Positions 7,693-59,404 of a DNA stretch of 59,404 nucleotides are shown here, one piece after another (position 1 is the first letter of the stretch; the number at the start of each line of letters is the position of its first letter). The notes beneath the pieces are model-generated. The model saw nothing but the letters and a program-made list of their open reading frames with translations. It was not told the DNA's origin and did not search any database. A program made the translations under genes and the position numbers. Source of the stretch: Thermoleophilia bacterium (lineage in GTDB: Bacteria > Actinomycetota > Thermoleophilia > Solirubrobacterales > 70-9); NCBI GenBank assembly GCA_016649615.1, contig JAENXK010000002.1, positions 1 to 59,404 of the forward strand, given 5' to 3'.

Positions 7693-9051
7693 ATGAGAAC
7701 CGTCTCGACTGATGCCGGTTGGATCACCCAGGTTCCCGGGGACCGCTTCGGCGGCGTCCGTGGCCCGGGCCGGCTGCTGGCAACTGCCCTGGTGCTCGCT
7801 GTGGCCTGCCTGATGCTCACCAGCGCCGCCGCGCACGCCGCGACCGGCTCGATCTCGGGCAAGGTGACAAACAACTCGGCCACCCCCCTTGAAGACATCT
7901 GCGTCGACGCCTATCACCCGAGTGGAGGATTCATCGAGGAGGACTTCACCGGCCCGGACGGCACCTACACCATTCCGTGACTTGAAAACGCCAGCTACCG
8001 GATCGAGTTTTCCGATTGCGGCGACAACAACGTCACCGGCGAGTTCTACAACAACAAGCCCGATTTCGACTCGGCTAACCCGGTAGCGGTAACCGGAGGG
8101 TCCGAGACGGGCGGCATCAATGCGGTGCTGGGCGTCGGCGGCTCCATCTCGGGTACCGTGACCAAGAGCTCGGCCCTGCCCCTGGAGGACATCTGCGTCG
8201 ACGTCTACGACTCAAGCGGGAGCGAGTCGAGCTTCGGCTATACCGAACCGGACGGCAGCTACACGATCGAGGGGCTTCCGGGCGGAAACCACCGGATCCA
8301 GTTTTACGACTGCGGCTCCAACAACGTCGTCAGTGAGTACTACAACAACAAGCCCGACCTCGCCTCGGCCAACCGGATCGCCGTCACCGCGGGGTCCGAG
8401 ATCACCGGCATCGATGCCGCGCTGGCCCCGGGCGGCTCGATCTCGGGCACCATCACCGACAGCTCGAAAGAGCCCCTGGAGGACATCTGCGTCGACGCCT
8501 ACGATTCGAGCGGGGACGATTCGGGTTCCAGCTACACCGAACCGGACGGCAGCTACGCCGTTGAAGGACTTGCGAGCGGAAAACACCGGATCAGGTTCTA
8601 CGACTGCGGTTCCAGCAACGTCGCCGGCGAGTACTACGACGACAAGCCCGACCTCGGTTCGGCCACCCCGGTCGCTGTGGCGGCAGGGTCAGAGACCGGC
8701 GGCATCAATGCCAGGCTGGCGCCGCGCGGCAGCCAGGCCGGCAGGGGCAAGGCCAGGATCAAAAAGGCAAAAGTCAGTGGGCCCCGCAAAGTGGAAATGG
8801 GCAAGGCATCCACCTACAGGATGAAGATCAGAAATTCCGGCAACGCGAAAGCCGAGGGCGTAAGACTCAGGGTGAGCGGCAAAGGTGTGCGTTTCAAGAC
8901 ATCCGTCGGAAAGATCTCCCCCGGCAAGGTGAGGAAGGTCAGGGTCAGGCTCAAGCCGAAGAAGCGGGGCACGGTCAGGCTCACTTTCAGGGTCACCTCG
9001 AAAAACGCCGGCGGCAAGACCGTCAAGAAGAAGATCACCGTCAAGAGGTAG
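7693..9051 (+). pseudogene. Secreted carboxypeptidase-regulatory-like repeat protein with in-frame TGA
   Basis: The frame is continuous from about 7693 to 9051 except for TGA at 7978-7980. A signal peptide (LATALVLAVACLMLTSAAAH) leads into three 98-residue carboxypeptidase-regulatory-like modules beginning near 7846, 8140 and 8434. Each module has the pattern GSISGxVT, PLEDICVDxY, then a DGxY and a DCGxNN turn. The stop falls where modules 2 and 3 have Gly (GGG/GGA), so a single G-to-T change would create it. A basic CARDB/DUF11-like domain (about 8755-9051) ends KKKITVKR. Modules are conserved on both sides, indicating a recent lesion or a base-call error. A shorter product starting at GTG 8125 would lack a signal peptide. 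The intact protein would be exported; its partner is unknown. Confidence 0.7.
7846..8727. repeat. Three tandem 294-bp coding modules
   Basis: The modules start near 7846, 8140 and 8434 with an exact 294-bp period (98 codons). Copies 2 and 3 are the most alike; copy 1 carries the stop codon at 7978. Confidence 0.8.
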
Positions 9052-21811: not shown

Positions 21812-21899
21812 GTCAAGATGTTGAATCTATTTTAGCGCCAGCATCTCACTGGTAGACTGGGACCGTCTATGCATGAATTAACTGATCAGGGAGGCTCTC

Positions 21900-23303
21900 G
21901 TGAATGATTCGCATACCGGCAGGCGTCTTCGCCCGCTGTTCGTACTTCTGACACTGTTTTCGCTGCTGGGGATGACCATGCTGGCGGTCGGGGCCGCCGA
22001 TGCCGGGGCCAAGTCGAAGAAGGGCGCCAGGCCGACCCCGATGATCTTCGTGCACGGACAGTCCGGCTCGGCCCAGCAGTTCGAGTCGGACGCGATGCGG
22101 TTCACCAGCAACGGTTTCCCGCAGAAGCGGATATTTGTCTACGAGTACGACACCAACGAGAGCACGAACGACCTCGCGATCGCCGGCCTCGACCCGTTCA
22201 TCGAGAAGGTGAAGTCAAAGACCGGCGCAGGCAAGGTCGACGTGCTCGCCCATTCCCGTGGGACCACGGTTATGCACTCCTACCTTTCAACCCCCGAGCG
22301 GGCCGCCATGGTCAGCCACTACGTCAACTTCGACGGCCGCTCGAGCGACAGCCGGCCGGGAGGCGTGCCGACGCTCGCTGTCTGGGGCGAGAGCTTTGAT
22401 GGAGGCCCCGATACGCGCGAGATCGTCGGGGCGAAGAACGTTCGTTATCCCCAGAAGTCGCACACCGAGGTCACCACCTCGAAGCAGGCCTTTGGCGACG
22501 TATACAAGTTCCTGACCGGCAAGAAGCCGAAGACGATCAACGTCCTGCCTGAGCCCCCGGGACAGGTCACCGTGGCCGGTCGGGCCTCGCTGTTTCCGGA
22601 CAACACCGGCATCGAAGGCGGCAAGCTGAAGGTCTTCCAGGTCAAGGCCAAAACCGGCCAGCGCATCGGCAAGCCGGTCTACAAGCGCAGCCTCGGCGCC
22701 AGCGGTTCGTTCGGCCCGTTCAAGGTGAACGGCAAGAAGTACTACGAGTTGGTCGTCTCCAGGCCGGGAGAGTCGACGATCCACAACTACCCGGAGCCGT
22801 TCGAGCACGACGACCACTTTTACCGGGTGCTCTCCGCACCGGACCTGGCGCCGTTTCTCGATACGAGTCCGAACCACACGAACGTCGCGGTCACCCGCAT
22901 GCGCGAGTTCCGGGGAGATCAGACCGGCCCCGGCGCAAACGACAGGCTCACCTTCAACGGCCTCAACGTGATCAACCCGTCGATCGCTCCCCGGGAACGC
23001 AGGGTGCTGGCCGTCTTCAACCTCGACCGGGACTCCGATGGCGTGACCGACACCAGCGCCTCTCTGTTCCCGTTCAGAGTTCTGTCGTTCCTCACCGGCG
23101 TCGATAACTTCATGCCGGCAAGCCCCGACGCGAGCGGAAAGATCGCGGTGAAGGAGAAGATGCGAGACCCGGGTGGCCAGACCAAGACGACCAATGTCCC
23201 GAACTGGCCGTCATCGGAGCACACGGTCTCGGTCTACTTCAAAGACTACGCGGCGAAGAGCTTCACCAAGAAGAAGAACAAGAAGGGCAAGAAGGGAAAG
23301 TAG
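21900..23303 (+). CDS. Secreted alpha/beta-hydrolase (LipA/esterase-like) with C-terminal lysine-rich tail
   Basis: The 467-aa protein has a signal peptide (PLFVLLTLFSLLGMTMLAVG) and then a lipase-like domain. This includes TPMIFVHGQSGSAQQFESDA (oxyanion HG), nucleophile elbow VLAHSRGTTV with the A-x-S-x-G form seen in Bacillus LipA, and a late His in RYPQKSHTEVTT. From about residue 215 a beta-rich C-terminal half (GQVTVAGRASLFPDNTGIEG) resembles carbohydrate/calcium-binding modules often attached to such esterases. The protein ends in a tail of mostly Lys and Gly (KKKNKKGKKGK). An AGGGAGG site is 6 nt before GTG 21900, and TAGACT (21853-21858) is a candidate -10 box. It probably hydrolyses an extracellular ester. 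Confidence 0.83.
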   Translation: MNDSHTGRRLRPLFVLLTLFSLLGMTMLAVGAADAGAKSKKGARPTPMIFVHGQSGSAQQFESDAMRFTSNGFPQKRIFVYEYDTNESTNDLAIAGLDPFIEKVKSKTGAGKVDVLAHSRGTTVMHSYLSTPERAAMVSHYVNFDGRSSDSRPGGVPTLAVWGESFDGGPDTREIVGAKNVRYPQKSHTEVTTSKQAFGDVYKFLTGKKPKTINVLPEPPGQVTVAGRASLFPDNTGIEGGKLKVFQVKAKTGQRIGKPVYKRSLGASGSFGPFKVNGKKYYELVVSRPGESTIHNYPEPFEHDDHFYRVLSAPDLAPFLDTSPNHTNVAVTRMREFRGDQTGPGANDRLTFNGLNVINPSIAPRERRVLAVFNLDRDSDGVTDTSASLFPFRVLSFLTGVDNFMPASPDASGKIAVKEKMRDPGGQTKTTNVPNWPSSEHTVSVYFKDYAAKSFTKKKNKKGKKGK

Positions 23304-45100: not shown

Positions 45101-46066
45101 TTATCGCTTGACGCGGATGACCACGGACTTCTTGCCGGCGCCGGTCTTCACGGTGACGCGCACCCGCTTGAGCTTGCCGGATCGAGACGCCCGGACGCCG
45201 ATCCGGTTCAGTCTGACCTTGATCCGGGACCTGCCTGACAGAACTCCGAAGCCGGCGCGGCCGAGAAGGCGGTTTCTCTTGATCCTCTTACCGCCGAGCC
45301 GGAATTTCTTGGCTGACTTGACCGCGACCCTGCCGGCCACCCCTCCGGTATTCAGGTTGAGCAGGAGGCTGCGCCCGGAGATCGACGCGCCGAGGATCGT
45401 CGGGCCGCCCGCGGCCGCCGGAGCAGTAACGGTGGGTCCTCCGCCTCCGGGAGCGGGCGGTGTGCCTCCGGGAGCGGGCGGGGCAGTGCCGAGCACCGTC
45501 ACGGTTGCCTGATCGGAGAGCTTTGCGCCCGGTTCCTGAGGAGTGCTCGAGGTTACGTAGGCCGTGTTCACGAATTCGGTCGGAGTTGTCGCCGATCCGG
45601 TTCGGAGCCTCAGGCAGAGCAGGTGGAGGGTCGCGTTCAACGGGGTCCCGGTCGGGTTCCAGATCTTGAAGACCCGGGTAATCGGCTGGGGGTCGTTGCC
45701 CAGCGGGATCAGTCCGTCTTCGTATTCCCATCCGGCGACGACTCCCTTGTAACCGTCGGGGCAGGTCAGCTGCTCGCTGACTACCGCTCCCGGCGCGACC
45801 TCGATCTCCTTGGTGATCGGGGTAAACTCGAGTTGTCCCCCGTTGCTGGTCAGATTGGAGATGCACCGCATGCTCACCGTTGCGATCGCGCCGTCCTGGT
45901 TGATCTTCAGGGTGAACTTGCGGCCGTTCGCGCCGTCGGGCGCGCTCGCGAGCAACCATGTCCGGCTGCCTGAGACCTCGAATTGGCCCCCCAGAATCCT
46001 CGCCTCAGCCGGAGATGATCTTCTGAAACAGCCGAGCCAATACCGCGAAAGATCGGCCGTGCGCAT
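45101..46066 (-). CDS. Secreted-type protein of unknown function, possibly missing its 5' end
   Basis: The 321-codon frame encodes a beta-rich domain (FEVSGSRTWLLASAPDG, ISNLTSNGGQLEFTPITKEI and EQLTCPDGYKGVVAGWEYED). A Pro/Gly-rich linker follows (PPAPGGTPPAPGGGGP), then a basic C-terminal domain ending GKKSVVIRVKR. This layout matches exported Solirubrobacterales proteins, and the C-terminus resembles the end of the protein at 9051. No signal peptide can be found: the N-terminus MRTADLSRYWLGCF is not one. The only start region overlaps the sulfatase start on the other strand by 8 nt, so either the true start is internal or the 5' end has been lost. The domain has Cys residues suited to disulfides. 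Confidence 0.62.
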   Translation of the reverse strand: MRTADLSRYWLGCFRRSSPAEARILGGQFEVSGSRTWLLASAPDGANGRKFTLKINQDGAIATVSMRCISNLTSNGGQLEFTPITKEIEVAPGAVVSEQLTCPDGYKGVVAGWEYEDGLIPLGNDPQPITRVFKIWNPTGTPLNATLHLLCLRLRTGSATTPTEFVNTAYVTSSTPQEPGAKLSDQATVTVLGTAPPAPGGTPPAPGGGGPTVTAPAAAGGPTILGASISGRSLLLNLNTGGVAGRVAVKSAKKFRLGGKRIKRNRLLGRAGFGVLSGRSRIKVRLNRIGVRASRSGKLKRVRVTVKTGAGKKSVVIRVKR

Positions 46067-47681
46067 TCTGCTCGCCGGCCTGGCCGCGGTCGCTCTGTTT
46101 TTTCTCCTGGGGGCTGCCGATCCCGGTTACGGCGAGGCCCGGAAGGCGGATCGGGCGCGGCCCAACATCGTGCTGATCCAGGCCGATGACGCGGTCCTCG
46201 GCGACGTGAAACACATGCCGAACGTACGCCGTCTGATGGTTCGCGGCGGCACCGGGTTCTCCAATTACTTTGTGTCCTACCCGCTCTGCTGCCCGGCCCG
46301 CACGACGCTTCTGACCGGTCAGTTCTCGCACAACCACCGGGTACTCAGCAACTTCCGAGGCAACAGTGGCGGCTACTACACCTTCCGGGACCTGCCCGGG
46401 AAGCTGAACCAGGAAAACTCCCTGGGACCGTGGCTCAAGCGGGCCGGCTACCGGACAGCCATGGTCGGCAAGTACCTGAATGAATACGGGGCGCTCGACC
46501 GGCGTGAGATCCCCCCGGGCTGGGACCGGTGGGCCGCCCTGCTCGACAATTCGACCTACGACTACTTCAACTATGCGATGAACATCGACGGCCGGGTCCG
46601 GTACTGGGGCGACCGCGGCTACGCCGAGAAGCAGCTCGCCCTGGCGCGACTGTTCATCACCGATCCGCCGGAGAGTTTCGGCGAGCTGTTCGCCGGCTTC
46701 CGATCGGTCTTCGTGCCGTTCGACTACTTCGGAAGCCAGAAGAACCGCGACTACACGATGGACGTCGGCGGCGGTTACGCGGCCCGGTTCGTGCGCCGCT
46801 CGGCCCCGGCGAAAAAGCCGTTCTTCCTCTACTACTCGCCACCCGGCCCGCATGCCGAAGACACCAACCACATGCAGGGTCTTCGCCCCGGGGCACCGGA
46901 GCCGGATCCCCGGCCGCCGCAGCGCTACAGGCATACCTTCGACGAAGTGCCGCTGCCGAAACCGCCCTCGTTCAACGAGGCGGACGTTTCCGACAAGGCC
47001 GAAAACCTCAAGTCTCTGCCGTCGCTGAGCGAGGCGCAGATCGGGGAGATGACCGACGACTACCGCGGACGCCTGGGGGCCGTCCGGGCGGTCGACGATC
47101 AGCTGGGCCGGATCGTGCGCGAGCTGCGGCGGGCCGGAGAACTCCGCAACACCTTCATCATCTTCAACTCGGACAACGGCTACCTCCAGGGTGAGCACCG
47201 GCTGTGGGGGTCGAAGTTCCTCCCCTACGAGAATTCGATCAGGGTGCCGACGATCATCCGCGGGCCGGGGGTGAAAGAGGGCGGGAGCCGAACTGGCAAC
47301 TCGATCGACGTCGACCTCGCCCCGACGATCCTCGACATGGCCGGGGCGAAGCCGGGCCGGGTCATGGACGGCGTTTCACTGATGCCGGCCGCCCGCGGGA
47401 AACGCAAGCTGCCACGCCGCAAGGTGCTGCTCCAGGCGATGCGGCCGCTGTTCAGGTTCCACACGCCACTGACCGCGTTCGATCTGCCGTTCTACGGGGT
47501 GCGGACGAACCGGTACAAGTACCTCAACTGGTCATTCGGCGAGACCGAGCTCTATGACATGCGCCAGGATCCGGACGAGCTGGAAAATCTTGCCGCAGAC
47601 CCCGCCTACGCCGGTACGGTCGCCCGCCTTCAGGCAGAGGCGGAACGCCTGAGAAAATGCCGCGGCTCGGCCTGCCGCTGA
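46059..47681 (+). CDS. Secreted sulfatase (formylglycine type)
   Basis: The 540-aa protein starts with a signal peptide (RILLAGLAAVALFFLLGAAD). It has the sulfatase opening RPNIVLIQADDAVLGD with metal-binding Asp pair and the formylglycine site in YPLCCPARTTLLTGQFSHNH (C-x-P-x-R). Further metal and sulfate ligands follow in TAMVGKYLNEYG, FNSDNGYLQGEHRLWGSK and IDVDLAPTILDMAGAKP. Maturation needs a formylglycine-generating enzyme, absent in this window. GTG 46059 gives a good signal peptide, but it has no clear ribosome site. It should release sulfate from an extracellular polymer or small ester; specificity is not predictable. The DUF1330 gene starts 21 nt downstream. Confidence 0.9.
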   Translation: MRILLAGLAAVALFFLLGAADPGYGEARKADRARPNIVLIQADDAVLGDVKHMPNVRRLMVRGGTGFSNYFVSYPLCCPARTTLLTGQFSHNHRVLSNFRGNSGGYYTFRDLPGKLNQENSLGPWLKRAGYRTAMVGKYLNEYGALDRREIPPGWDRWAALLDNSTYDYFNYAMNIDGRVRYWGDRGYAEKQLALARLFITDPPESFGELFAGFRSVFVPFDYFGSQKNRDYTMDVGGGYAARFVRRSAPAKKPFFLYYSPPGPHAEDTNHMQGLRPGAPEPDPRPPQRYRHTFDEVPLPKPPSFNEADVSDKAENLKSLPSLSEAQIGEMTDDYRGRLGAVRAVDDQLGRIVRELRRAGELRNTFIIFNSDNGYLQGEHRLWGSKFLPYENSIRVPTIIRGPGVKEGGSRTGNSIDVDLAPTILDMAGAKPGRVMDGVSLMPAARGKRKLPRRKVLLQAMRPLFRFHTPLTAFDLPFYGVRTNRYKYLNWSFGETELYDMRQDPDELENLAADPAYAGTVARLQAEAERLRKCRGSACR

Positions 47682-51813: not shown

Positions 51814-53076
51814 ATGAGTAAGAAAATTGTCATCATCGGAGCCGGAACCGGCGGCACGCTCACCGCGAATCGCCTGCGCCGCATGTACGATCGCGATGCC
51901 GCGGAGATCGTGGTCATCGACAGCGACGACGACCATCTCTACCAGCCCGGCCTGCTGTTCGTGCCGTTCGACCTGGCTCAGCCCAAGGACATCGTGCGCT
52001 CCCGGTCAGAGCAGCTGAACGACGGGATCGAGTTCCGTCTCGCCGAGGTCGACCGGGTGGAATTTGAAGACAACACCGTTTACCTGGCCGACGGTTCCTC
52101 AATCGGCTACGACGTCCTCGTGGTCGCCAGCGGGGTGTCGCTGCTGACGGATGAGACCGAGGGACTGACCGGACCCGGCTGGGGCGAAAAGGCGTTCGAC
52201 TTCTACACCCTTGATGGCGCGGTGGCACTGCGGGACGCCCTGAGCAAATTCGACAGTGGCCGGCTGGTGGTCAATACGATCGACATGCCGATCAAGTGCC
52301 CGGTGGCGCCGCTCGAATTCTGCTTTCTCGCCGACTGGTACTTCCAAGAGCGGGGGATTCGCTCCGAGGTGGAGATCACCTATGTCACTCCGCTGGACGC
52401 GGCCTTCACCAAGCCGGTAGCCGCCGAGCACCTTGCCGGCATGTTCGAAGAGAAGGAGATCTCGCTGGAGGCGGAGTTCGCGACCGGTCGGGTGGACGCC
52501 GAAGCCGGCCGGCTGATCAGCTGGGACGAGCGCGAGATCCCGTTCGATCTGCTGGCCGCGATTCCGCTGCACGGCGGTTCAGAGTTTGTCGCCCGCTCGC
52601 CGGGGCTCGGCGACGATCTCGGGTTTGTGCCGACCGACCCGAACACACTGCAGAGCGAGGCGGCACCGAACGTGTTTGCGATCGGCGATGCGACAAACCT
52701 TCCGACATCCAAGGCCGGCTCGGCCACCCATTTCGAAGGCGATACGCTGACCGACAACATCGGCCGCTTCCTGGACGGCGAAAAACTCGAGGGCAGCTAC
52801 GACGGTCACGTCAACTGCTTCATCGAGACCGGATTTCACAAGGCGCTGCTGATCGATTTCAACTACGAGGTCGAGCCGCTTCCCGGGCGCTATCCGAGCA
52901 AAGCCGGCCCGCTTCCCCTGCTGCGGGAATCGCGACTGAACCACCTCGCTAAGCTTGCCTTTCAGCCTTTCTACTGGCACGCCCTCCTCCCCGGCCGCGA
53001 CATGCCGGGGGTAGGCGCCCAGATGTCCATGGCCGGCAAGCAGCCGGTCACAAGCGAAAAAGGAGACAACGGATGA
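51814..53076 (+). CDS. sqr: Sulfide:quinone oxidoreductase-like FAD protein
   Basis: The 420-aa flavoprotein opens IVIIGAGTGGTLTANRLRRM with a GAGTGG dinucleotide-binding loop. It has YDVLVVASGVSLL, MPIKCPVAPLEFCFLADWYF and the FAD-binding NVFAIGDATNLPTSKAGSAT. Cys162 and Cys335 occupy the two positions that in sulfide:quinone oxidoreductases carry the trisulfide bridge; the first of the three classical Cys residues is missing, as in some SQR types. The C-terminus (LRESRLNHLAKLAFQPFYWH) is the amphipathic membrane-association region. It should oxidise sulfide to persulfide or polysulfide and pass electrons to quinone at the inner membrane face. It heads a four-gene sulfur operon and overlaps the next gene by 4 nt. 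Confidence 0.88.
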   Translation: MSKKIVIIGAGTGGTLTANRLRRMYDRDAAEIVVIDSDDDHLYQPGLLFVPFDLAQPKDIVRSRSEQLNDGIEFRLAEVDRVEFEDNTVYLADGSSIGYDVLVVASGVSLLTDETEGLTGPGWGEKAFDFYTLDGAVALRDALSKFDSGRLVVNTIDMPIKCPVAPLEFCFLADWYFQERGIRSEVEITYVTPLDAAFTKPVAAEHLAGMFEEKEISLEAEFATGRVDAEAGRLISWDEREIPFDLLAAIPLHGGSEFVARSPGLGDDLGFVPTDPNTLQSEAAPNVFAIGDATNLPTSKAGSATHFEGDTLTDNIGRFLDGEKLEGSYDGHVNCFIETGFHKALLIDFNYEVEPLPGRYPSKAGPLPLLRESRLNHLAKLAFQPFYWHALLPGRDMPGVGAQMSMAGKQPVTSEKGDNG

Positions 53077-53390
53077 GTACCGCCACCTATGCCGGCACAC
53101 CGGTCGAGGTTGACGACGAGGGTTTCATGACCGACCCCGATCAGTGGAACGAGCAGATCGCCGAGCAGATCGCCGCCGAAAACGAAATCGATCAGCTCAC
53201 CGAACGTCACTGGATGGTGATCAACTACATGCGCGAGTCCTATCTCGAGGACGGCTCGGCGCCTTCGATCCGGACCCTCGGAAAGGCTTCCGGGGTCCCG
53301 ATCAAAGAGCTGTACCAACTGTTTCCCAAAGGGCCCGCGAAGCGGGCTGCAAAGATCGCCGGAATCCCCAAGCCGCGCGGCTGCATCTAG
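53073..53390 (+). CDS. DsrC/TusE-family sulfur carrier
   Basis: The 105-aa protein matches DsrC/TusE over its full length: VEVDDEGFMTDPDQWNEQIA, LTERHWMVINYMRESYLEDG and the flexible C-terminal arm AAKIAGIPKPRGCI. Cys104 next to the last residue is present. The second DsrC cysteine, 11 residues earlier, is Ala93, so it cannot make the intramolecular trisulfide of true DsrC and should act as a single-Cys persulfide carrier, as TusE or RspA-type proteins do. ATG 53073 overlaps the SQR stop, showing coupling to the supposed persulfide source. No dissimilatory sulfite reductase is in the window. Confidence 0.9.
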   Translation: MSTATYAGTPVEVDDEGFMTDPDQWNEQIAEQIAAENEIDQLTERHWMVINYMRESYLEDGSAPSIRTLGKASGVPIKELYQLFPKGPAKRAAKIAGIPKPRGCI

Positions 53391-53404
53391 AAAGCGAGGA
53401 CAGG

Positions 53405-53923
53405 ATGAGCGAAGTAGCTGAAATGAACGAGACGGTCGATCAGGCCGACGACGAAGGCGCCGAACCGATCAAGAAGGTCTCGGTGATCATTTCCAAGGGC
53501 TCTCTCGAGGGCATCTACCCCGGCCTGATCATGGCCAACGGTGCCCGGATGGAGGGAATCGAAGCCAACGTCTTCTTCACCTTCTTCGGGCTGGACGCGA
53601 TCAACAAGTCCAAAAACGACAACGTCAAGGTCTCGACGGTCGGGAACCCCGGCCTGCATCTGGCCACCATGGTGGGCGGCCTGCCCGGCATGTCGTCGAT
53701 GGTGACCAAGAAGCTGGCGGGGGAGATGGAGAAGCTCGACATCCCGCCGATCCCCGAGTTTCTCGAGATGATCTCCGATTCAGGCGCTCCCCTTTACGGG
53801 TGCAAGGCATCGGTTGACCTTTTCGGGCTGGACAAGGACGACTTCATGCCCCAGGTCGAGGACATCATCACGGTCGGCGAGTTCTACGACTACGCAGCCG
53901 GCGGCCAGATCATCTTCACCTGA
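53405..53923 (+). CDS. DsrE/DsrF-like (DsrE2-type) sulfur-transfer protein
   Basis: The 172-aa protein has an acidic N-terminus and then the DsrE fold: KKVSVIISKGSLEGIYPGLI, EGIEANVFFTFFGLDAINKS and SDSGAPLYGCKASVDLFGLD. Cys133 in YGCKAS is at the conserved active position of DsrE2-type sulfurtransferases. The family usually receives sulfur from rhodanese or TusA and passes it to other carriers; here a DsrC-like carrier and SQR are immediate neighbours. It has a GCGAGGACAGG ribosome region before ATG 53405 and ends 5 nt before the methyltransferase start. Confidence 0.87.
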   Translation: MSEVAEMNETVDQADDEGAEPIKKVSVIISKGSLEGIYPGLIMANGARMEGIEANVFFTFFGLDAINKSKNDNVKVSTVGNPGLHLATMVGGLPGMSSMVTKKLAGEMEKLDIPPIPEFLEMISDSGAPLYGCKASVDLFGLDKDDFMPQVEDIITVGEFYDYAAGGQIIFT

Positions 53924-57123: not shown

Positions 57124-58950
57124 CTAAGGCTTGACCACGCGAATCGCACCACGCATCAGCGGGTGGATCCGGCAGAAGAAGGTATGGGTGCCGACCGGCA
57201 GGTCTTTCGGGGTCGACCAGGTGTTCCGCTCCACGGTCGGTGGCCCTCCCGTCCCCAACTGCCCGGAGTCGAACTGGAACTCGCCGTCGGGGATCGGGTA
57301 GCCGATCCCGGTCGACCTGTTACAGGGTGACTCGCACGAGGTGAGTGAGTGCCAGATCTCCTTGCTCGCGTCTCCAGAGGCAAGCTCGAAGGTGAATGAC
57401 TTGCCCTGCTTGACCACCGGCGGGCGGCCGATGCTGCCCGGGATCCGGTAGTCGCCGGCTTCGTAGCTGAAGCCGCCGATCTTGAACGGCCCGCCGGAGG
57501 CCAAGCCGTCCGGGAGGGTGGCCGGGTCCGGCCCGACCGTCGGGCCGGTGCCGCCGTGATCGTCGTTTTCTGCGTAGTGCCCGTGGTTGAGCACACCGTC
57601 GTGGTCGACCCGGGTCCGGTAAGGGTCATCTCCGCCGGACTCCTTGGCCATGTAGACGACGTTGATCCCCATCGACTCGTACCAGGAAGCCCGCTCGGTC
57701 TCATATGTCGCCTGCAGTTCGAGCGTATCGCCGGCCTTGACCTCGACTCGCCAGTCCGGCGCAGTGCCGTACATCGCCATGTCCCAGGAGACCGGCCCCC
57801 TCGGTTCGAAGTAATTGACCCTCGACTTGAACAGGTGAACCCGGTTGCCCTCCACCTTCGGCTGCGTGTCGACGCAGGCCTGGTGGGCCTTCATCGCGGC
57901 CGAGGCTTTCGCTTTCAACCGCCTCAGCTTCTTCGAGTTGGAACGCTTGCGCCGCTTGATCTTCTTCTGCGACTTCCGGTTCGCCTTCGCCCGCCTGTTC
58001 GCCGTCCTGCTCATCTTCCTGCGCAATTTCTTCTGGCGCCTGCTCAGCTTCTTCTGTTTGCGCTTGGCTTTCTTGATCGCAGTCGCGTAGCTCTTCGGTG
58101 GATCGCACGTGGGCCCGGCGTAACTCGCGCCCTCACGCTTCAGGTAGAGGTCGGTCGAGAGCCCCCCGCTATGCACGTGGCCGGCCGTTGTGACCAGCAC
58201 ACCGTCTTCGGTGATCTTCTTCTCGTTCTTCTTAACCCCCGGCGGGTAGGGATCCTCTGCGTCCTGCGGGTAGGTGAACTCGCCGTCTGGTCCGCCTGAG
58301 CCCCGGTGAACGTCGAAGACCGGGTAGATCCCGCTTTCCACATCCATCCAGATCGGTTTGACCGGGGTGATGCCTGCAGCCGCCGGTGAGCTGTCCGGGA
58401 TGAAGTCGATCGTGTAGGTGACGAACAGGGTCATCGGTTCGGGCTCGAGGTTGTGCAGCATGTGGTTCAGGATCCAGTTGTCGCTCGCCCTGTAGCGGTA
58501 GCCATAGCCCGCCGGAATCTCTACGTTGGTCTTTTCTTCGCCGGTGGCGAAGAAGAGCCGTTCGCGCGCCGGGGCGGACGTGTTGATCCAGACGCCGTGG
58601 TGGAACATCACCTTGCTGGAAAGCGGCACCGAGCCATCGGCCCGGACCATGTTCGGGACGATCCGGGTGATCCAGCCGTCCACCGCCGGTTTCTCACTGC
58701 CGGTGATCGGTTTGTAGGCGATCCGGTTCTGCCCGGAAGTCACCTCGATCGGGCCGACCGCATAAGTGGTCCTTTCGGCTCCGCTGGGGAGCTCGATGGT
58801 CTCGCTCGTGCCGGCCTGGGCGGTCCCGGCGAATCCGAGGGCCAGGAAGGCGGCGCATGTCGCGAGAAGGCAGGCAAGGCGGGTCCGGCGGCCGGGGCCG
58901 CGGCGCTCGATCAGCTTGTCGATCCCGAAATCCAATTTCCCTCCGGTCAT
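57124..58950 (-). CDS. Secreted cupredoxin-domain protein with a basic coiled-coil-like insert
   Basis: The 608-aa precursor has a signal peptide ending near residue 46 (LACLLATCAAFLALGFAGTA). A His-rich beta-sandwich region follows (about 50-285 and 360-465; MFHHGVW His117/118, AGHVHSGG His258/260, NHGHY His456/458). A C-terminal cupredoxin domain (about 490-608) has a type 1 copper set: His534 in EIWHSLTS, Cys593, His596 and Met599 in FFCRIHPLMRG. Residues 293-355 are an almost entirely Lys/Arg segment (57886-58074), bracketed by Cys282 and Cys359. The His pairs recall type II copper monooxygenases, but that link is speculative. It is probably an extracytoplasmic copper/redox protein of unknown substrate, and looks like a single-gene unit. 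Confidence 0.75.
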   Translation of the reverse strand: MTGGKLDFGIDKLIERRGPGRRTRLACLLATCAAFLALGFAGTAQAGTSETIELPSGAERTTYAVGPIEVTSGQNRIAYKPITGSEKPAVDGWITRIVPNMVRADGSVPLSSKVMFHHGVWINTSAPARERLFFATGEEKTNVEIPAGYGYRYRASDNWILNHMLHNLEPEPMTLFVTYTIDFIPDSSPAAAGITPVKPIWMDVESGIYPVFDVHRGSGGPDGEFTYPQDAEDPYPPGVKKNEKKITEDGVLVTTAGHVHSGGLSTDLYLKREGASYAGPTCDPPKSYATAIKKAKRKQKKLSRRQKKLRRKMSRTANRRAKANRKSQKKIKRRKRSNSKKLRRLKAKASAAMKAHQACVDTQPKVEGNRVHLFKSRVNYFEPRGPVSWDMAMYGTAPDWRVEVKAGDTLELQATYETERASWYESMGINVVYMAKESGGDDPYRTRVDHDGVLNHGHYAENDDHGGTGPTVGPDPATLPDGLASGGPFKIGGFSYEAGDYRIPGSIGRPPVVKQGKSFTFELASGDASKEIWHSLTSCESPCNRSTGIGYPIPDGEFQFDSGQLGTGGPPTVERNTWSTPKDLPVGTHTFFCRIHPLMRGAIRVVKP

Positions 58951-59038: not shown

Positions 59039-59404
59039 GTGGAGAGGACGTCGGAAGATCTGATCGTGATCGGTGCGGGGATTCAGGGAGTCACCCTGGC
59101 CCTGGCGCTCGCTGAGCGCGGGGTCGGGTCGACCATCCTCGAGCGGGGTCCTGGCCCGCTGAGCCAGGCAAGCCTCCGCAACGAAGGCAAGATCCACCTC
59201 GGATTCGTCTACGCCCTCGATCGGACCGGCCGTACGACCGCGGCGATGGTCGAAGGAGCGCTTACCTTCACGCCGCTGCTGGAGCGCTGGTGTGGCGAGA
59301 TGGACTGGCGGGCGAACCGGTCCGGGCGGTTCGCGTACGTGATGATCGACGGTGGCCTGGCCGGTCCGGGCGAGCTGGAACATCACTACGAGCTGGTCAT
59401 GGAA
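59039..59404 (+). CDS. FAD-dependent oxidoreductase of the DAO type (3' end outside window)
   Basis: The frame is open from GTG 59039 to the last base (122 codons). It contains LIVIGAGIQGVTLALALAER, the GxGxxG dinucleotide-binding loop with the acidic end of the second strand in STILERGPGPL. SLRNEGKIHLGFVYALDRTG follows, typical of D-amino-acid-oxidase/glycine-oxidase-like flavoproteins. The substrate domain and C-terminus are missing. TAAACT (59025-59030) ends 8 nt before the GTG and no ribosome site is present, so this start fits the leaderless pattern seen across the window. It diverges from the cupredoxin gene. Confidence 0.82.
   Translation, partial: MERTSEDLIVIGAGIQGVTLALALAERGVGSTILERGPGPLSQASLRNEGKIHLGFVYALDRTGRTTAAMVEGALTFTPLLERWCGEMDWRANRSGRFAYVMIDGGLAGPGELEHHYELVME

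What the first reader, a model, noticed from the sequence alone, without database searches (positions are those of the whole stretch)
57886..58074. 63-residue Lys/Arg-rich insert within an exported copper-type protein
Residues 293-355 are nearly all Lys, Arg, Ser, Ala and Gln with heptad-like spacing, placed between two Cys residues inside a beta-rich extracellular protein. Such charge density is unusual for a folded exported domain; it might bind wall polymers, nucleic acid or an acidic partner, or form a cationic helical arm held by a disulfide.
Basis: partly seen in the sequence, partly recalled or inferred. Interest (0 to 1): 0.55.

Follow-up and report, generated by a model that had tools for sequence, protein, structure and literature searches.

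The report
Cationic helical arm on copper enzyme
An actinobacterium secretes a copper-type protein shaped like the animal enzymes PHM and dopamine beta-hydroxylase, and its genus has grown a positively charged, cysteine-bracketed helical arm out of one loop of it, most likely to hold the protein on a negatively charged surface.

Summary
Residues 293-355 of a 608-aa, apparently exported protein (57124-58950, minus) hold 34 Lys/Arg and no Asp/Glu in 63 residues, between Cys282 and Cys359. It is not an artefact: all 29 complete, anchored homologues of the genus carry a Cys-bracketed arm of 24-115 residues there, net +8 to +34. Elsewhere in the order the arm is missing or a 10-15-residue loop. Across 77 anchored homologues, 34 have the Cys pair with an insert, 43 have neither, 0 have one Cys. 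AlphaFold2 predicts a helical hairpin, block pLDDT 76-97. The host has a PHM/DBH fold (Z 16.2) plus a cupredoxin, with invariant HH, H, HxH, M and type-1 ligands. A neighbouring small cupredoxin has a cationic beta tail whose charge tracks the arm's (r 0.96, 12 genomes), and cationic tails are common in exported proteins here. I favour electrostatic tethering to an anionic envelope polymer. New variant of a known kind.

The parts
57124..58950 (-). ORF, 608 aa: exported PHM/DBH-like domain + cationic arm + cupredoxin
   Evidence: fold
58813..58950 (-). Putative Sec signal peptide, residues 1-46 (ends AQA)
   Evidence: read from sequence; no signal predictor run
57640..58812 (-). PHM/DBH-like fold (residues 47-437, interrupted by the arm)
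   Evidence: VIA Z 16.2 to PHM 6ala, 240 residues, rmsd 3.4
58597..58602 (-). His117-His118, candidate CuH ligands
   Evidence: 76 of 76 homologues with a residue there
58453..58455 (-). His166, candidate third CuH ligand
   Evidence: 77 of 77; equivalence to PHM H172 inferred
58171..58179 (-). His258-x-His260, candidate CuM ligands, on the strand before the arm
   Evidence: 77 of 77 each
58105..58107 (-). Cys282, first Cys of the arm base
58006..58086 (-). Arm helix 1, residues 289-315
   Evidence: AlphaFold2, block pLDDT 83-96
57886..58074 (-). Lys/Arg-rich insert as given, residues 293-355
57871..57999 (-). Arm helix 2, residues 318-360
   Evidence: AlphaFold2, block pLDDT 76-97
57874..57876 (-). 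Cys359, second Cys of the arm base
57670..57672 (-). Met427, candidate CuM ligand
   Evidence: 76 of 76
57133..57495 (-). Cupredoxin domain, residues 486-606
   Evidence: VIA Z 8.8 to 9cck, 99 residues; amicyanin in Foldseek
57349..57351 (-). His534, type-1 Cu ligand candidate
   Evidence: 75 of 75
57154..57174 (-). Cys593-x2-His596-x2-Met599, type-1 Cu ligand motif
   Evidence: 74 of 74 each

Best explanation
The insert is a helical-hairpin arm grown from the tip of a beta-turn in the second (CuM-like) half of an exported PHM/DBH-like copper protein that also carries a cupredoxin. Two cysteines sit at the base of the arm and probably form a disulfide that clamps it, so its length can change without disturbing the fold. 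The arm probably works as an electrostatic tether: Lys/Arg on two long helices bind an anionic polymer of the cell envelope or extracellular matrix and keep the acidic copper core there, next to a separate small cupredoxin that is held the same way by its cationic beta tail. Shown here: sequence, conservation, coupled Cys pair and insert, evolutionary order, conserved neighbour. Predicted: hairpin, PHM-like and cupredoxin folds. Inferred: export, disulfide, copper, ligand, tethering.
For: All 34 inserts with Cys have both (10-115 residues), 43 homologues have neither, 0 have one; 33 of 34 are net positive. Tree: all 29 arms of 20 or more residues form one side of a 100/100 branch, with 4 of the 5 mini-loops next to it. 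AlphaFold2 hairpin in two proteins with 76- and 102-residue arms. Eight homologues keep a 102-residue arm at about half identity. With no acidic residue in the 63-aa insert, two adjacent helices carrying +34 need counter-charge (inference). A small cupredoxin with a cationic tail (+17 to +30) is encoded just upstream of a family copy in 12 of 14 congeners examined, and its tail charge tracks the arm charge (r 0.96; 0.93 after independent contrasts; enzyme core 0.29, n.s.). Unrelated cationic C-terminal modules track the arm too (r 0.75, 11 genomes). Exported-like proteins carry cationic tails far more often than others.
Against: No ligand is shown. The arm's charge is labile: the sister gene in G015 has only +11. 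The arm evolves fast (pN/pS 0.82 against 0.27 for a core stretch), which also fits weak constraint. Lys use in other proteins of the same genomes correlates with arm charge (r 0.70, small samples), so genome-wide composition may explain part of the covariation. The covariation test was devised after seeing the data. What anionic polymer these cells carry is unknown to me.
Confidence: 0.5

Rival explanations
1. Docking arm for one acidic protein partner, for example an electron donor or a second subunit, as the LSD1 tower holds CoREST (that role recalled).
For: The predicted hairpin resembles helical-hairpin inserts such as the LSD1 tower (Z 9.8) and the MacA/EmrA hairpins (Z 8.1 to 10.2); eight homologues keep a 102-aa length with more positionally conserved K/R, D/E and hydrophobic columns than shuffles give (relatedness not corrected).
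Against: Z under 13 may mean only a common arrangement for helices (note). The neighbouring cupredoxin is itself cationic through its tail. Arm length and charge vary widely between paralogues of one genome.
Confidence: 0.2
2. The arm recruits an anionic polymeric substrate to the copper site rather than anchoring the enzyme.
For: The arm leaves the turn directly after the strand carrying His258-x-His260.
Against: Over half of the family examined (43 of 77) has the same invariant ligands with no such insert; no substrate is known.
Confidence: 0.12
3. The arm has no function of its own: a Lys-rich loop that grew by drift and is tolerated because the Cys pair seals its base.
For: High pN/pS, labile charge and length, link with genome Lys use.
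Against: Present in all 29 complete anchored congeneric copies, always net positive, and helical in prediction; 102-aa length kept in eight.
Confidence: 0.15
4. Assembly or frame artefact.
For: None found.
Against: Same feature in independent MAGs and named contigs; open frame throughout.
Confidence: 0.01

Closest known systems
Peptidylglycine alpha-hydroxylating monooxygenase (PHM) and dopamine beta-hydroxylase
   Same: Two-half beta fold over about 240 aligned residues (Z 16.2 and 14.9); HH ... H ... HxH ... M in the same order, invariant in the family.
   Different: No PHM/DBH Pfam model matches; a cupredoxin is fused at the C-terminus; a helical arm fills a turn; activity unknown.
Amicyanin/plastocyanin-type cupredoxins
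   Same: C-terminal domain with His...Cys-x2-His-x2-Met; amicyanin is the best sequence and Foldseek match.
   Different: Fused to a PHM-like domain; scores below curated cut-offs; that part of the model is low in confidence.
LSD1 tower and MacA/EmrA adaptor hairpins
   Same: A long antiparallel helical hairpin inserted in a larger protein.
   Different: Cationic, Cys-bracketed, of very variable length; Z values in the range where helices match by chance; no homology claimed.
Cationic teichoic-acid-binding domain of Lactobacillus S-layer proteins (PMC11181022, passages read)
   Same: A positively charged exported region proposed to bind an anionic wall polymer.
   Different: A different domain; binding here is not tested.

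Membership tests
PHM/DBH copper monooxygenases | PHM fold | tested here: met
   (Z 16.2, 240 aligned, rmsd 3.4); repeated on a homologue, (Z 14.2, 238 aligned, rmsd 3.5)
PHM/DBH copper monooxygenases | Six copper ligands (PHM H107, H108, H172, H242, H244, M314; H242/H244 recalled) | tested here: inconclusive
   Candidates H117, H118, H166, H258, H260, M427 invariant; no residue-level superposition was available
PHM/DBH copper monooxygenases | Recognisable by the curated sequence models | tested here: not met
   No PHM/DBH model listed at E up to 1; so called PHM-like, not filed as a member
PHM/DBH copper monooxygenases | Hydroxylase activity with bound copper | not testable with these tools
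   needs purified protein
Type-1 cupredoxins | Cupredoxin fold | tested here: met
   (9cck Z 8.8, 99 aligned, rmsd 3.0; 5fc9 Z 8.6, 93 aligned, rmsd 2.7); modest, low-pLDDT region
Type-1 cupredoxins | His, Cys, His, Met ligands | tested here: met
   H534 75/75; C593, H596, M599 74/74 each
SURNod19 (PF07712) | Score above the Pfam cut-off | tested here: not met
   11.2 bits against 25
MacA/EmrA-type adaptor hairpins | Hairpin flanked by lipoyl half-domains (recalled) | tested here: inconclusive
   Only the hairpin aligns; lipoyl halves were not looked for

The most novel reading that the evidence does not exclude
Solirubrobacterales secrete a PHM/DBH-like two-site copper oxygenase with a built-in cupredoxin electron donor, partnered by a separate cupredoxin; one genus has added scalable, disulfide-clamped cationic towers and cationic tails whose charge is tuned together to the anionic surface on which the system is held.
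Probability: 0.3. Interest if true: 0.72.

Novelty: new variant of a known kind. Interest (0 to 1): 0.5.

Why it matters
It would give bacterial counterparts of the animal PHM/DBH fold with their own cupredoxin, so that the question of how electrons reach such a copper pair could be studied in one chain. The arm gives a traceable series, from a bare turn through a 10-residue Cys loop to a 115-residue hairpin, of how a protein gains a long appendage. The parallel charge of unrelated exported appendages suggests a testable rule for protein retention in this little-studied class of bacteria.

Tried and rejected
Pfam and NCBIfam matches of the insert to exonuclease VII, MutS2, TnpB and others were rejected as composition-driven: E 0.15 to 0.8, far below cut-offs. 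Searching the own genome with the insert alone found only itself, since bias correction hides other Lys-rich stretches. A search for other Cys-bracketed cationic inserts in 400 kb of G001:C7 and in the loci then held gave only weak candidates without clear kinship; the gene caller was crude. Matching the hairpin to MacA, EmrA, dynein or LSD1 was not taken as homology. A docking role for the neighbouring cupredoxin was lowered because its tail is cationic too. One further exported family of G001, meant as a charge control, was too rare, 2 of 12 genomes. Another gave scattered matches; its loci were pooled with those for the module count. No module was counted in G004, so rests on 11 of 12 genomes. 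The Lys-use control is weak: 1 to 12 genes per genome outside G000 and G001. In one search, 12 of 28 gene pairs were out of register in the core stretch and were dropped; 16 were kept. Of 95 deduplicated homologous frames, 19 lacked the anchors; one was recovered by a slightly wider anchor, so 77 are counted and 18 are not. The 77 include some truncated copies.

Papers: searches (Solirubrobacterales or Solirubrobacter with lysine-rich, cupredoxin, secreted cationic) returned nothing; others listed nothing on a bacterial PHM-cupredoxin fusion (listings and abstract starts only). Passages were read of PMC3882225 (Nod19 is a target of the copper-linked microRNA miR398b; only a loose pointer, since SURNod19 scores below its cut-off here) and PMC11181022.

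Full report
What is there. The stretch lies in a 608-codon frame on the minus strand (57124-58950). Residues 293-355 hold 34 Lys/Arg and no acidic residue; Cys282 and Cys359 bracket them; the rest of the mature protein is net -17. The window is contig C209 of a 2.25-Mb genome in 238 contigs whose congeners are MAGs named Solirubrobacterales (class Thermoleophilia).

Is it real and special? A protein search matched 109 of 232 genomes of the order, including 17 of 18 of the genus. From the loci I fetched, 95 distinct homologous frames remained, and 77 had both anchors around the insertion point. 34 have a Cys...Cys insert (10 to 115 residues between the Cys), 43 have no Cys there, none has one. 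All 29 inserts of 20 or more residues belong to the window's genus and range from 24 to 115 residues, 0.25 to 0.67 Lys+Arg, net +8 to +34. The five short ones (10, 10, 11, 11, 15 residues) are in other families of the order; four of them are net +3 to +5, one is neutral. A truncated copy in G017 also enters such an insert before its frame ends. So the segment is neither a sequencing artefact nor confined to one genome.

Where it came from. A tree of the core without the insert places all 29 long arms on one side of a 100/100 branch; four mini-loops lie beside them inside a 100/99 clade, though their own grouping is weak (90/29); the fifth mini-loop (G093) is a separate gain. The simplest order is: plain turn, then a small Cys-closed loop, then a long arm. 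In the plain-turn members the strand reads straight through the turn (for example L024). Length then changed repeatedly, also between paralogues of one genome.

What shape. AlphaFold2 on 15 sequences gives two helices, residues 289-315 and 318-360, with block pLDDT 76-97, inside a model of mean pLDDT 72.3 and pTM 0.67. A homologue with a 102-residue arm gives helices of 38 and 55 residues, block pLDDT 86-96. I had no coordinates, so the Cys-Cys distance was not measured; the disulfide rests on the paired presence of the Cys. Eight proteins keep an arm of exactly 102 residues at mean 0.52 identity.

What it sits on. VIA-align of the Foldseek candidates puts residues 47-437 on PHM (6ala, Z 16.2, 240 residues, rmsd 3.4) and DBH (4zel, Z 14.9), with all other folds at 8.8 or below, and residues 486-606 on cupredoxins (9cck Z 8.8; 5fc9 Z 8.6). 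Foldseek alone had no match at E 0.001 or better; amicyanin came first at 6.5e-3 and PHM was not in its top 50. The homologue repeats the PHM match at Z 14.2, but its list shows no cupredoxin, where that model is poor. His117, His118, His166, His258, His260 and Met427 are invariant among the homologues with a residue there, as are His534, Cys593, His596 and Met599. The order matches the PHM sites (H107, H108, H172 and M314 appear in the PDB titles; H242 and H244 recalled), but residue equivalence is inferred. No PHM/DBH sequence model matches, so I call it PHM-like.

What surrounds it. In 12 of 14 congeneric genomes examined, a small cupredoxin gene lies directly upstream, on the same strand, of a family copy; it was absent from the 18-kb stretch of G011, and in G012 the family gene reaches the contig end. 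In the own genome this pair is on contig C51, not in the window. The 12 small cupredoxins have a domain of net -2 to -11 and a tail of about 113 residues of net +17 to +30. Across these 12 genomes the highest arm charge and the tail charge correlate (Pearson 0.96; contrasts 0.93); with the mean arm charge 0.89 and 0.86; the enzyme core does not follow after contrasts (0.29, p 0.36). Unrelated cationic C-terminal modules in 11 of these genomes also follow the arm (0.75). Against a private meaning, Lys use in other proteins follows too (0.70), with few genes per genome. The tests were chosen after looking.

Cationic tails in general. With a crude export rule on 400 kb of G001 plus the window, 14 of 63 exported-like ORFs have net +15 or more in their last 80 residues, against 2 of 194 others. 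So exported positive charge is a habit of this lineage, and the arm is one topological form of it.

How it most likely works. The arm projects from a turn behind the HxH strand, is self-repelling at net +34 unless neutralised, and is joined to an acidic copper core. I think it holds the enzyme on an anionic envelope or matrix polymer, together with the tailed cupredoxin. The fast evolution of the arm (pN/pS 0.82 against 0.27 in a core stretch of 16 pairs) fits a role that needs shape and charge but not exact sequence; it also fits drift. I put tethering at about one half, a specific acidic partner at 0.2, no function at 0.15.

Novelty. A PHM-like plus cupredoxin fusion with a helical tower was not found in the searches named under Tried and rejected, which cover open-licence papers only. 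Every piece has a known counterpart, so I rate it a new variant of a known kind.

Noticed in passing
51814-53923 (+): Flavoprotein of Pyr_redox_2 type, DsrC and DrsE_2/DsrE genes in a row, a sulfur-transfer set; the same three match beside a family copy in G015 (L033 3265-4849), and a related flavoprotein lies near family copies in several congeners.
   Followed up: partly
L034 2540-3322 and equivalents; own genome L132 2126-2857: Small secreted cupredoxin with an acidic domain and a cationic beta-type tail, upstream of family copies in 12 of 14 congeners.
   Followed up: partly
7981-9048 (+), C-terminal 100 residues: Cationic C-terminal module that recurs at the ends of many exported proteins in the genus, several per genome.
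   Followed up: partly
21882-23300 (+) and 45104-46126 (-): Two more window ORFs with Lys- or Lys/Arg-rich stretches, the first at its C-terminus.
   Followed up: no
57701-58108 (-): The same DNA read in another frame gives a Glu/Gln-rich 135-aa frame, a plain consequence of AAG-rich codons.
   Followed up: no
59042-59404 (+): Start of a FAD-dependent oxidoreductase (DAO) divergent from the copper gene, cut by the window end.
   Followed up: no
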